From: Sulfurospirillum sp.
GTDB lineage: Bacteria; Campylobacterota; Campylobacteria; Campylobacterales; Sulfurospirillaceae
NCBI GenBank assembly: GCA_016744795.1
Contig: JADGDR010000001.1
Span: forward strand, 62,001 to 126,000
Direction: 5' to 3'
DNA length: 64,000 nt
The notes below the pieces were generated by a model, which was not told the DNA's origin, made no database searches, and worked only from the letters and a program-made list of their open reading frames with translations. Within the stretch, counting starts at the first letter, position 1. Each line of letters opens with the position of its first letter. Position numbers and translations under genes: made by a program. Positions 20,336-60,499 of the stretch are shown here, piece by piece.

Positions 20336-20987
20336 TCACCGCCCCTCATCTCGAATTTTTTTGAGTATCTCTTGATTCTCTCCAAAAAAGTCTCAATATT
20401 TTTTTATATTTTTTTTACATGTAAAGCTTATATTTGAATACAGTTACGCTTTTTATCTATTAGGCTCTCAAAGTTTAACTAAAGAGGATTTTAGGGGGTC
20501 AAACAAAAAGGGGGGAGTAGGGGGGTGCAAATATGAAAAGTGTAATTTACTTTTTAGTTTGGTGGGTAAAATGTAAAATTGTAGATAACATCTCCTTTGT
20601 TCTGGTCTTTTTTGTTCTTTAAGGTTTCTCTTTATTTTACTAAACTTAAACGCTTTGGTGCTTTTCTTTAGCAATGCTTAAAAAAGTCCTCTTTTTGTTT
20701 CGCTTTTCTGTTATTAACGAAACTTTTAAGCAATAACAAAGTTTAAACCCCTTTTTAACCCACTCCACTACACTTATGTCCGTGAAACATTCATTTTCTC
20801 TCTTCAACTCTAAAAAAACTAGAATTTCCACTTTTTCCCCAAAAAACAGAACCACCCCCCCATTCTCTATAAAAACAAGGTCAAAACCCCTATTTTAAAA
20901 GAAAACCTTTTCTTTTCATATTTTTTTAAAGAAATTGTTTGTTTGTAAAATCATTTTGAAAAAAAAATTTCCGAGATGAGGCGGTGA
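20336..20987. repeat. Non-coding element bounded by 25-base inverted repeats
   Basis: Left end TCACCGCCCCTCATCTCG (20336-20353, continuing AATTTTTTT). Right end is its near-complement, CGAGATGAGGCGGTGA (20972-20987, preceded by an A-run), with one two-base indel. Inside are G-runs at 20494-20526 (GGGGG, GGGGGG, GGGGGG) facing C-runs at about 20850-20895 on the same strand, and a central hairpin (TGTTATT / AATAACA, about 20710-20738). No credible gene is inside. It may be one large imperfect stem-loop, a MITE-like insertion, or an origin/ncRNA. No clear target duplication is seen. Confidence 0.5.
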
Positions 20988-21281
20988 GGTCTTAGTGGTG
21001 TATAAAAACAACCTTCCCCTGTTCGCGATTGCTTTTTTTGCTCATGGTTCGTTTCTCTTTGTTTGGTTTTGCTGCTCTCTGGTCTCTTGGGCTTTCTGCT
21101 TTTGGTCTCTTGGACTTTTACTCCTTATTTTTACTTTACGTCTTGTGTGGGCTGTAAAGTGTCTTTTTGTCGGCTTTTATCCTCTTTTCGCGTTTTCCCT
21201 CCTTTTTCTTAAATTTAAGGAAGTCATAAGTTTTGTAACGGTAAGATGTTCCATGTCGAAAATATAACGGCTTGTTTTGTT
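20988..21281. other. Non-coding leader region before small-gene operon (phage-plasmid A)
   Basis: About 290 bases without a supported gene; T-rich on the plus strand, with a tandem phrase GGTCTCTTGG at about 21078 and 21102. A hydrophobic reading frame (20995-21267) has poor composition and no good start, so I do not call it. The first TTGGCG hairpin follows directly. Confidence 0.35.
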
Positions 21282-21322
21282 GGACTTGGCGGTCCTGGTT
21301 GTTTTGTTTGTAAAGGTTTTGT
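21282..21322 (+). ncRNA. TTGGCG hairpin element, copy 1
   Basis: GGAC-TTGGCG-GTCC (21282-21295) followed by TGGTTGTTTTGTTTGTAAAG. Copies 2 and 3 have different stem sequences but the same loop and the same downstream tail, so stem bases covary while loop and tail are fixed. It lies about 100 bases before the 132-residue gene. Type assigned as structured RNA by inference; transcription is not shown. Confidence 0.5.
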
Positions 21323-21394
21323 TATGTTGCTTATTAAAAATGCATTATTTGTTAACTTGTTGGTTTTCGCTCCTGTACTTCAGGGAGTGTTATT

Positions 21395-21793
21395 TTGAAC
21401 TTATATAAAATAATAGATAAAAAAGAAACTATATGTTACTTAAAATATTTTTACGATAATTGTGATTGTAAACATTTTGTAATTAATACATTAGATGTAT
21501 CCCTAGATTGGACTTATGACAAAGTAGATTTTAGTGTAGATATAATTGTTGTAAATAAAGATAAATATTGGGAGATGTTGGAAGTTTTGCCCCCACTTAG
21601 AATGTTTGAAGTCAAAGAAGTTGAGGGTTTTTTGATGAGTGAATATGAAACAGGATGCATTACTAGTTGTTACTGTTCCTATAAAAATAGTTATTACCAT
21701 CTTTTTGTAAAAAATAGCGATAGTAGTGAAAAGATAGCTAATAGAGTTGTTTCTGCTCATCTAAACAAAAAAAATCTAATAAAAGGAGGATAA
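21395..21793 (+). CDS. Unknown protein (phage-plasmid A)
   Basis: Unrecognised 132-residue protein starting at TTG 21395, supported by AGGGAG eight bases upstream. Beta-rich with several Cys (CDCKH, GCITSCYCSY). Sequence VSLDWTYDKVDFSVDIIVVNKDKYWEMLEVLPPLRMFE suggests a small globular fold. First gene of the rightward accessory operon after the structured leader. Confidence 0.5.
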   Translation: MNLYKIIDKKETICYLKYFYDNCDCKHFVINTLDVSLDWTYDKVDFSVDIIVVNKDKYWEMLEVLPPLRMFEVKEVEGFLMSEYETGCITSCYCSYKNSYYHLFVKNSDSSEKIANRVVSAHLNKKNLIKGG

Positions 21794-21798
21794 AAACA

Positions 21799-21882
21799 AT
21801 GAGTGCTTTTATAAAAAAAGCTGACAGCTTAATGTGTAAGTTTGAACGTCACATGCTTAAGCTGTCTGAGTTGCTTTTCTAA
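21799..21882 (+). CDS. 27-residue peptide gene (phage-plasmid A)
   Basis: ATG at 21799 follows a strong AAAGGAGGA site. Peptide: MSAFIKKADSLMCKF, then ERHMLKLSELLF and a stop at 21880-21882; basic, amphipathic, one Cys. The next features are a TTGGCG hairpin (21895) and a terminator-like hairpin (21954), so it may be a leader peptide or a small regulator. Called from the ribosome-binding site and context. Confidence 0.45.
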   Translation: MSAFIKKADSLMCKFERHMLKLSELLF

Positions 21883-21894
21883 GTTAACACTGTT

Positions 21895-21942
21895 CTTGGA
21901 AGTCTTGGCGGACTTTCAAGGGCTAACTTTGTTTTGTTTGTA
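21895..21942 (+). ncRNA. TTGGCG hairpin element, copy 2 (longest stem)
   Basis: Ten-base stem CTTGGAAGTC / GACTTTCAAG (21895-21904 and 21911-21920) with one G-U pair, closing the loop TTGGCG (21905-21910). An outer pairing AGTTA / TAACT (about 21882 and 21923) may extend it. Tail TTTGTTTTGTTTGTAAATG matches copies 1 and 3. It stands 34 bases before a terminator-like hairpin. Confidence 0.6.
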
Positions 21943-21953
21943 AATGTAAGTTT

Positions 21954-21998
21954 AACTAAAATCTCTTTAAATGTCAAAAGGAGATTTTAGTTGGGTTT
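21954..21998 (+). terminator. Terminator-like hairpin (phage-plasmid A)
   Basis: Perfect 12-base stem AACTAAAATCTC / GAGATTTTAGTT (21954-21965 and 21981-21992) with a 15-base loop, followed by GGGTTTTAGTTT. The T-run is broken, so strength is uncertain. It lies between copies 2 and 3 of the TTGGCG hairpin. Confidence 0.5.
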
Positions 21999-22010
21999 TA
22001 GTTTGATGGT

Positions 22011-22048
22011 GAACTTTGGCGAGTTCTGGTTGTTTTGTTTGTAAAGGA
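22011..22048 (+). ncRNA. TTGGCG hairpin element, copy 3
   Basis: GAACT-TTGGCG-AGTTC (22011-22026), followed by TGGTTGTTTTGTTTGTAAAG, the same tail as copy 1. It is about 30 bases before the ATG of the broken DUF7659-like gene. Stem bases differ from copies 1 and 2 at most positions while pairing is kept. Confidence 0.55.
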
Positions 22049-22055
22049 AAATGTA

Positions 22056-22435
22056 ATGAATAAACTTGATATAGAGGCTGCACAATCTGAGATTTTTGAC
22101 TCAAACGGTGCATTTTTTGCTTTTGGTAATGAACAGTTTGAAGAAAAATGTAAAAAGGGAATTAAATATACTCAATTGCGTAGTGTCCTGTTGACATGTG
22201 TAAGAGTGTAATTTCTGCACTTAGTGCTTTACATCAAAAAAAGATATCTTATGATCTTGAGAATAATAGTAAAAAAGATTTAATTTGGTATGAACTTAGA
22301 AATTATGAAACACAAATAAGTGATGATATTTCTGAGGCAGTTATTGCATTGAGTGATTATGGAATAACTGAAGATGAAATAGAAGAAGAGTATAAGTTGT
22401 ATTTTAAATATTGTTGTAAAAATGATTTATTTTAA
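22056..22435 (+). pseudogene. DUF7659-like gene with a frameshift (phage-plasmid A)
   Basis: The first frame (22056-22208, 50 residues) reads MNKLDIEAAQSEIFDSNGAF then FAFGNEQFEEKCKK, the usual start of a small phage family (DUF7659-like: GAFFAF.NEQF). It then drifts (VLLTCVRV). The rest of the family pattern, CPVDMCKSVISALSAL...YELRNYETQISDDISEAVIALSDYGITEDEI, continues in another frame to 22435. The shift lies between about 22172 and 22208; no slippery heptamer suits a programmed event. A free ATG at 22196 could still give a 79-residue C-terminal product. Family naming is from memory of the motif. Confidence 0.55.
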
Positions 22436-24253: not shown

Positions 24254-24913
24254 ATGAAAATAGTGTTAGAGGATATATATGGTTCAGATTTAACCACAAG
24301 TTTTATAGAAGACTTAAGGAAGTTTGCAATGAGGAGTGAATTTAAAGCTTATAGGCAACTACTCATGTATAATACTTGTGATTTTATTGTCGTTGATCCT
24401 AAAATAAAGGAGTTTTTAAAGGGTGTAATATTAATAAATAAACGTACATTGGAAATGTGTGATATTTGGTTTTATGAAAATAAAAAGTATGGCATTTCTC
24501 CTATGCATACGATTATAGATGGTCAAATCCAAAAGAGAAAAATAGAACATAAAGGATTATTAGATAATGGCAGTTCTGAGGTGGATTTGGTTCCAGAAGT
24601 TGTGGACATTAAGTTAGAACATATACACGGATCACCTTTAAACCCATATTTTGTAAAAGACTTAAGGGATATAACAATAAAGGGTTTAGCTAAATCTACT
24701 TTTAAGCATTGCTGTAATTTTATTGTCGCTGATCATCAAATGGATGAGTTCAGAAGGGACGTAGTAATAATGCATGAACGTATATATAAAATGTGTGATA
24801 TTTGGTTTTATGAAAATAAAAAGTATGGCATTTCTCCTATGCATACGATTATAGATGGTAAGCTTCAGGAGAAAATAAATGCATTCGAAGGATTAAAAGA
24901 TGGCACGAATTAA
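24254..24913 (+). CDS. Internally duplicated protein upstream of parA (phage-plasmid A)
   Basis: Unrecognised 219-residue protein made of two copies of a ~100-residue unit (about 1-100 and 117-219). Each unit has a DI.GS.L/LEHIHGSPL start, CDFIVVD / CNFIVAD, and an identical block MCDIWFYENKKYGISPMHT. The block is also identical in DNA over about 70 bases (near 24456-24525 and 24790-24859), so the duplication is recent or kept by conversion. It overlaps the parA start by 14 bases, which suggests co-expression with the partition genes. Confidence 0.55.
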   Translation: MKIVLEDIYGSDLTTSFIEDLRKFAMRSEFKAYRQLLMYNTCDFIVVDPKIKEFLKGVILINKRTLEMCDIWFYENKKYGISPMHTIIDGQIQKRKIEHKGLLDNGSSEVDLVPEVVDIKLEHIHGSPLNPYFVKDLRDITIKGLAKSTFKHCCNFIVADHQMDEFRRDVVIMHERIYKMCDIWFYENKKYGISPMHTIIDGKLQEKINAFEGLKDGTN

Positions 24914-26524: not shown

Positions 26525-26862
26525 AGATAGAAGAAAATAATTATTTAGAGAAAAAAGACGAGGGCTACTTGGATTCAAAAGGTAGACTTTTTTCATTTAA
26601 AGGAGGGGAACATTTAAATGATATTTATGAGAGTAGAGAGATGGAGCTTAATTTTTGCCCTTTTTGTGATGCCAAAGAGGGTGTATATGAGAGAGTGACA
26701 CTTGAGGCTACGCAAGACTATAACTTTTGTGGTGTTCCCATGACAAACGAAATAAGCTCTTTTAATAAAACTTATTCAGGGGAAATTAGGTGCAAGAGTT
26801 GTGAACAAGAGATTCCTCCAGAGTTTTTCAATAAAAAAGTAGTGAGTTATGAGAACCTCTAA
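26521..26862 (+). CDS. Putative zinc-binding protein (phage-plasmid A)
   Basis: Unrecognised 113-residue protein from GTG 26521, overlapping the end of parB. Two CxxC pairs (NFCPFCDA near 46 and RCKSCEQE near 92) suggest one zinc site. Acidic N-terminus. It lies between parB and the recombinase gene and may serve either. Confidence 0.5.
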   Translation: MKIEENNYLEKKDEGYLDSKGRLFSFKGGEHLNDIYESREMELNFCPFCDAKEGVYERVTLEATQDYNFCGVPMTNEISSFNKTYSGEIRCKSCEQEIPPEFFNKKVVSYENL

Positions 26863-27370
26863 ACAATCTAAACCAATAGAAACTAAACACTATGTTTTGT
26901 TAAAAAGAGCCTGTAATTCTCAAAAATTAAAAAATGCCATGGCTCTTCTTTTTTATTGTGGCTTTAGAGTCAATGAGGTAAAACAATTTTTAAAAACCGA
27001 TATAGAACAGAGCATAAAGGGAAATGAGCTTATTGCAGATATTATAAAGCAGGGCATAATTAGAGATGTTAATCTTTCTGATAAAGCAAAAGCTGAATTA
27101 AGTACTCTCTTGTTAGAAACTAAAGGGGATTATTTTGTAAGGTACAGAGGTGATTCTCTTCGTGTTTGCTTGAACCGTTTTATAAAAAAGGTTTTAGGGG
27201 AGGGGTTCACCTCCCATGGTTTTAGACGAAATGCCATAACTACCATTATAAACTCACATAATCCTAGATTAGCACAAGATTGGATAGGTCATAAAGATTT
27301 AAAAACTACCCTAGGATATTATCACTCAAGCAGTGAAAATCTAAAAAAAGCGAGTAATAGCATTGGTTAA
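26849..27370 (+). CDS. Minimal tyrosine recombinase (phage-plasmid A)
   Basis: A 173-residue tyrosine recombinase lacking an N-terminal arm or SAM-like domain. Catalytic residues: Arg40 (CGFRVNEV), His123 and Arg126 (SHGFRR), His148 (IGHKDLKTT), and Tyr157 or Tyr158 (LGYYH). Being small and beside parAB, it more likely resolves phage-plasmid dimers than integrates the phage. It ends by converging on the TerS-like gene, with stop codons overlapping by four bases. Confidence 0.8.
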   Translation: MRTSKQSKPIETKHYVLLKRACNSQKLKNAMALLFYCGFRVNEVKQFLKTDIEQSIKGNELIADIIKQGIIRDVNLSDKAKAELSTLLLETKGDYFVRYRGDSLRVCLNRFIKKVLGEGFTSHGFRRNAITTIINSHNPRLAQDWIGHKDLKTTLGYYHSSSENLKKASNSIG

Positions 27371-60408: not shown

Positions 60409-60499
60409 TGGCGGACAGGGAGAGATTCGAACTCTCGGTAGGATTACTCCTACGCATCCTTAGCAGGGATGTGGTTTAAGCCAACTCACCCACCTGTCC
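60409..60499 (-). tRNA. tRNA-Ser(GCU), attachment site of prophage B
   Basis: A class II tRNA of 91 bases on the minus strand. Acceptor arms GGACAGG and CCTGTCC with encoded G and CCA; T arm with GTTCGAATC; anticodon loop CTGCTAA, giving anticodon GCU (serine); long variable arm CGTAGGAGTAATCCTACC. The 3' end faces the integrase, so the attachment core is probably the 3' part. A partial copy should stand at the far left end of prophage B, outside this window. Confidence 0.93.

What the first reader, a model, noticed from the sequence alone, without database searches (positions are those of the whole stretch)
21282..22048. Three hairpins with an invariant TTGGCG loop and covarying stems
GGAC-TTGGCG-GTCC (21282), CTTGGAAGTC-TTGGCG-GACTTTCAAG (21895) and GAACT-TTGGCG-AGTTC (22011) share the loop and a downstream tail (TTGTTTTGTTTGTAAA) but differ in stem sequence while keeping pairing. 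Covariation with a fixed loop is the mark of a structured RNA bound by a protein, as with boxB in antitermination or phage translational operators. They sit in a rightward lysogeny-side operon of A, each ahead of a small gene. I know of no described element with this loop and tail.
Basis: seen in the sequence. Interest (0 to 1): 0.82.

Follow-up and report, generated by a model that had tools for sequence, protein, structure and literature searches.

The report
Repeated leader hairpins in a prophage
One prophage in a bacterium of the Campylobacter order carries three copies of a small RNA hairpin that keep the same loop and the same downstream U-rich sequence while their stems change in step, so it is probably a gene-control switch on messenger RNA, but it was found in no other genome searched.

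Summary
All five comparable pairs change on both sides between copies. G·U pairs in copy 2 point to the + strand RNA. A fourth tail core (12 nt) lies at 20938 without this hairpin.

In copies 1 and 3 the order is hairpin, TGG, tail, AAAGG Shine-Dalgarno, 7-8 nt, ATG. Copy 2 has no Shine-Dalgarno and no gene behind it. The genes served are plasmid-type: a DUF1419-like protein, and a DUF7659 gene that is broken by a frameshift.

Three copies exist in the host genome. None was found in five congeners, 399 genomes of the order, viral contigs or Rfam.

My best reading is a leader element acting after transcription, near the ribosome-binding site, like the T4 gene 43 or gene 32 operators. No binding protein is identified, and two of the three hairpins are weak on their own. 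An antitermination site, a passive translation enhancer, and copies from one duplication remain possible. The orphan status keeps interest moderate.

The parts
21282..21295 (+). Hairpin 1: 4-bp stem GGAC/GTCC, loop TTGGCG
   Evidence: -4.5 kcal/mol alone, pair probability 0.59-0.92 depending on 5' context
21299..21314 (+). Tail 1, TTGTTTTGTTTGTAAA, running into the AAAGG Shine-Dalgarno (21312-21316)
   Evidence: Shine-Dalgarno read from sequence
21324..21398 (+). 24-codon ORF behind copy 1 (MLLIKNALFVNLLVFAPVLQGVLF), overlapping the TTG start of the next gene
   Evidence: (within ORF 21246-21398); not shown to be translated
21395..21793 (+). 132-aa DUF1419-like gene (TTG start, Shine-Dalgarno AGGGAG)
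   Evidence: PF07215, 8.5e-05, 23.1 bits against cut-off 23
21799..21882 (+). 27-codon ORF with Shine-Dalgarno AGGAGG, between the 132-aa gene and hairpin 2
   Evidence: Read; not tested further
21892..21923 (+). Hairpin 2: 13-14 bp stem with three G-U pairs, loop TTGGCG
   Evidence: (-17.8 kcal/mol, z -3.55)
21929..21944 (+). Tail 2, exact copy; followed by ATG-TAA, no Shine-Dalgarno
21954..21992 (+). Strong A/T-rich hairpin between copies 2 and 3; AAAGGAG lies inside its right arm
22011..22026 (+). Hairpin 3: 5-bp stem GAACT/AGTTC, loop TTGGCG
   Evidence: -3.4 kcal/mol alone, pair probability 0.41-0.94
22030..22045 (+). Tail 3, exact copy, running into AAAGG (22043-22047)
22056..22435 (+). 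DUF7659 gene split by a frameshift (22056-22211 and 22196-22435)
   Evidence: intact homologues read in one frame
20934..20949 (+). Fourth tail-like site ATTGTTTGTTTGTAAA (exact 12-mer core at 20938) without a TTGGCG hairpin

Best explanation
A short cis-acting RNA element in the rightward transcript of a prophage with ParA/ParB genes. A hairpin with fixed loop UUGGCG (probably a U-G closing pair and a UGGC tetraloop) sits 3 nt (copies 1 and 3) or about 5 nt (copy 2) before a fixed unstructured U-rich tail. In copies 1 and 3 that tail leads straight into the Shine-Dalgarno of the next reading frame. Most likely one trans-acting factor recognises loop and tail, and so sets translation of several plasmid-type accessory genes together; copy 2 would be a spare or degenerate site. 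Shown here: the sequences, the spacing, the covariation between copies, and the + strand preference. Inferred: transcription, a binding factor, and the effect on translation. No factor is identified.
For: All five stem pairs covary with an invariant loop, and no other hexaloop in the window behaves this way. The U-G and G-U pairs of copy 2 form only in the + strand RNA. In copies 1 and 3 the spacing hairpin, tail, AAAGG, ATG is nearly identical, with 16 nt from stem to Shine-Dalgarno. Known phage operators have the same plan: in T4 and RB69 gene 43 the operator hairpins share loop and top while stem length differs, and in T4 gene 32 a folded 5' part is followed by an unstructured A+U-rich run over the ribosome-binding site (PMC3014915).
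Against: Only three copies in one genome and no relatives, so covariation rests on three sequences, two of which are close copies. Hairpins 1 and 3 are weak and compete with other folds. Copy 2 has no Shine-Dalgarno and no gene. An ungapped alignment gives a different correspondence between copies 2 and 3. The fourth tail lacks the hairpin. No SSB or RNA-binding candidate was recognised among the prophage proteins scanned. Transcription is not shown.
Confidence: 0.42

Rival explanations
1. Passive leader: a hairpin that protects or spaces the mRNA, followed by a U-rich ribosome (protein S1) loading stretch and a Shine-Dalgarno, copied by duplication in front of genes. No dedicated regulator; the loop is conserved because the copies are young.
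For: The tail is unstructured, U-rich and abuts AAAGG in copies 1 and 3. Copies 1 and 3 share 22 contiguous bases after the stem, which suggests recent duplication.
Against: Duplication alone does not explain loop identity together with full stem change in copy 2. Copy 2 is not at a ribosome-binding site.
Confidence: 0.22
2. A nut-like antitermination or RNA-processing site: the hairpin plays boxB and the tail plays a boxA-like role, so that transcription passes later stops.
For: Copies lie inside a polycistronic region, one of them (copy 2) between genes where translation control makes no sense. In bacterial rrn leaders a stem-loop can precede boxA (own knowledge). A strong hairpin, 21954-21992, follows copy 2.
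Against: The tail does not match the boxA-like stretches TCTTTGAAA and GTTCTTTAAAA that I read by eye in rrn leaders of related genomes. No N-like protein was seen. Rfam gives no match.
Confidence: 0.14
3. A repeat acting at the DNA level, such as a recombination or protein-binding site, or simply copies left by duplication of a T-rich stretch, with the pairing partly fortuitous.
For: The tail is better conserved than the hairpin and occurs a fourth time without it. The area looks degenerate: the DUF7659 gene is broken. A short tyrosine recombinase is encoded at 26849-27370.
Against: For a protein reading duplex DNA the arms, not the spacer, should be conserved; here it is the reverse. The tail is not a palindrome. 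The chance of three such stems is small.
Confidence: 0.15
4. A single-strand DNA promoter (Frpo/ssi type) as used by establishment genes of conjugative plasmids.
For: DUF7659 relatives lie on Vibrio plasmids typed as conjugative, near traI in two of three regions viewed. Such genes use hairpin promoters (PMC11541004).
Against: Frpo hairpins carry -35 and -10 elements in the folded strand; these stems of 4-14 bp carry neither TTGACA- nor TATAAT-like sequence. The prophage genes scanned are phage genes, with no relaxase recognised.
Confidence: 0.03

Closest known systems
T4/RB69 gene 43 translational operator (gp43 hairpin)
   Same: Hairpin with conserved loop and upper part, variable lower stem, in the leader upstream of the translation start (PMC3014915)
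   Different: Loop UAAC rather than UUGGCG; one copy per phage acting on its own gene; binder known. Here three copies and no binder
T4 gene 32 autoregulatory leader
   Same: Folded 5' part followed by an unstructured A+U-rich run overlapping the ribosome-binding site (PMC3014915)
   Different: The folded part is a pseudoknot; the run is UUAAA repeats; the factor is the phage SSB. No SSB recognised here
Lambda boxB / nut and rrn boxB-boxA
   Same: Small hairpin with a conserved loop beside a conserved linear element
   Different: Loop differs; the linear element is not boxA-like
EGeRS / conserved upstream repeats of conjugative-plasmid establishment genes
   Same: Repeated sequence upstream of several plasmid accessory genes that marks a regulon (PMC8708921)
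   Different: Those are longer sequences; ours is a 35-55 nt RNA element in a prophage

Membership tests
Phage translational operator (gp43/gp32 type) | Structure close to or overlapping the ribosome-binding site of the controlled gene | tested here: inconclusive
   Met for copies 1 and 3, not met for copy 2
Phage translational operator (gp43/gp32 type) | Phage-encoded RNA-binding repressor | tested here: inconclusive
   None recognised among the proteins scanned; many have no known family
Phage translational operator (gp43/gp32 type) | Binding represses translation | not testable with these tools
   Needs reporter and binding assays
boxA/boxB antitermination site | boxA-like sequence next to the hairpin | tested here: not met
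   Tail TTGTTTTGTTTGTAAA does not match boxA-like stretches read in related rrn leaders
Frpo/ssi single-strand promoter | -35 and -10 elements within the folded strand | tested here: not met
   Stems of 4-14 bp without such elements
Intrinsic transcription terminator | G+C-rich stem directly followed by a run of T | tested here: inconclusive
   Hairpins 1 and 2 pass a loose scan, hairpin 3 does not; the T run is broken by G and begins 3-5 nt after the stem
Any Rfam 15 family | Covariance-model score at or above gathering | tested here: not met
   Only a tRNA at 60412-60499 in the window; no credible weak match near the element

The most novel reading that the evidence does not exclude
A previously undescribed RNA operator class (UUGGCG loop plus UUGUUUUGUUUGUAAA tail) by which one phage or plasmid factor co-ordinates translation of several establishment-type genes in a prophage of Campylobacterales.
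Probability: 0.25. Interest if true: 0.55.

Novelty: new member of a known kind. Interest (0 to 1): 0.36.

Why it matters
If it is an operator, it would be an unassigned RNA-protein (or RNA-RNA) contact controlling several accessory genes at once in a little-studied phage group. It would give a small, testable motif for finding the binder. As it stands it is an orphan element in one genome.

Tried and rejected

Covariance model from copies 1 and 3 over 399 genomes of the order: only the own copies are significant, the others have E 0.03 or worse. The model was built with N placed at the inserted pair of copy 1, because the aligner would not align the loops.

Gene neighbours as a route to relatives: the 121-aa and 241-aa proteins have none in viral contigs. 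The 132-aa protein has only a spurious hit, inside a 408-aa reading frame. DUF7659 relatives in two genomes of the order carry no such element, and Vibrio plasmids have no TTGGCG hairpin with this tail.

attC-like, dif-like and sigma-54-like readings were considered on the sequence and dropped: no R boxes at the ends, arms not conserved, spacing of the GG/GC elements wrong.

Antisense pairing between the 20934 site (minus strand) and the tails was considered. That site is paired inside the large fold in the model, so it was not pursued.

Full report
What is there. Copy 1 is GGAC-TTGGCG-GTCC, copy 3 GAACT-TTGGCG-AGTTC. Copy 2 has a stem of 13-14 bp if G·U pairs are allowed. TTGGCG as a word is not rare in the window (10 found, 6.6 expected). 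What is rare is TTGGCG on a stem: it is the only hexaloop with three stems of at least 4 bp within 1.5 kb, and the background rates for such stems are 0.6% (4 bp) and 0.2% (5 bp) of positions. The core TTTGTTTGTAAA occurs four times in 64 kb, all on the + strand between 20938 and 22045; the fourth site, at 20938, has no TTGGCG hairpin.

Covariation. With the loops lined up, all 14 cells pair and all five pairs show a change on both sides; 4 of 500 shuffles reach this, and sliding the partner by one column breaks it. This rests on three sequences. Copies 1 and 3 are close (one G-C to A-T change and one inserted T-A pair), so the main independent evidence is copy 2. The aligner, left alone, prefers another register between copies 2 and 3, so the homology of that loop is probable but not certain. 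The G·U pairs of copy 2 would be A·C mismatches on the other strand, so the + strand is the likely RNA. The model usually closes the loop with a U·G pair, leaving UGGC.

Placement. In copies 1 and 3 the order is stem, TGG, tail, AAAGG, 7-8 nt, ATG. After copy 1 comes a 24-codon frame that overlaps the TTG start of a 132-aa DUF1419-like gene. After copy 3 comes a DUF7659 gene that is split by a frameshift here and intact elsewhere. Copy 2 follows a 27-codon frame, has no Shine-Dalgarno, and is followed by a strong hairpin (21954-21992). A 17-codon frame (21991-22044, TTG start) with its Shine-Dalgarno inside that hairpin would run through hairpin 3 and stop in the tail; this is read from the sequence only.

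Context. The stretch belongs to a prophage with a CI/S24 repressor, a replication initiator, a terminase large subunit, a portal protein, ParA and ParB and a short tyrosine recombinase of 173 aa. That recalls phage-plasmids, though it lies in a chromosomal-looking contig beside a second phage-like stretch with an integrase next to a tRNA. DUF7659 relatives lie on Vibrio plasmids, nine of ten typed as conjugative, near traI in two of the three regions viewed, so at least this gene is of a plasmid accessory type.

Relatives. Exact loop-plus-tail: three copies in the host genome, none in five congeners, only chance places in 399 genomes of the order and in viral contigs. The covariance model finds only copies 1 and 3 as significant in 399 genomes, and copy 2 weakly (E 0.039) in the window. 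BLAST against phages finds nothing, nor does Rfam. The element is an orphan in what could be searched. Genomes with a diverged tail could be missed, and metagenome contigs were not searched.

How it most likely works. The fixed parts (loop, tail) are what a factor would read; the variable stem is what a factor would need only as a fold. Because the tail runs into the Shine-Dalgarno in two of three copies, I think control of translation start is the most likely role (0.42). The T4 gene 43 and gene 32 leaders show that such plans exist (PMC3014915). A passive leader (0.22), an antitermination or processing site (0.14), and a DNA-level or merely duplicated repeat (0.15) are not excluded. A single-strand promoter is unlikely (0.03). 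Hairpins 1 and 3 are weak: in longer context their pair probabilities fall to 0.59 and 0.41, which leaves room for a factor that stabilises them, or for no function.

Verdict. New member of a known kind, moderate interest.

Noticed in passing
20336-20987: A 650-bp noncoding stretch closed by a 27-nt inverted repeat (TCACCGCCCCTCATCTCGAATTTTTTT / AAAAAAATTTCCGAGATGAGGCGGTGA) that folds as one large structure on either strand (z -3.0 and -3.5 against 20 shuffles); no Rfam match. The closing arm was found intact in no other genome of the family; 24 viral contigs hold the 16-mer and were not examined.
   Followed up: partly
20967-21216: The most A-poor 250-nt stretch of the + strand in the window (28 A of 250), T-rich, just upstream of copy 1; holds a hydrophobic 90-codon frame of doubtful coding status.
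   Followed up: partly
22056-22435: DUF7659 gene interrupted by a frameshift between its N-terminal and C-terminal parts, intact in two genomes of the order.
   Followed up: partly
L299 1400-1930: Around an intact DUF7659 gene, two intergenic copies of another hairpin-like repeat (CCC..AGGGG..ATCCCCT..GGGATAG) whose arms also seem to differ in step; read by eye only.
   Followed up: no
L298 740-1235: Repeated leader-like words (ACCCTAATTTTTTGAAACAT, ACATCACATTACGCTTTTTTGA) between small plasmid-type genes; read by eye only.
   Followed up: no
24254-24913: A 219-aa protein with two internal copies of a WFYENKKYGISPMHTIIDG stretch, i.e. an internal duplication (read).
   Followed up: no
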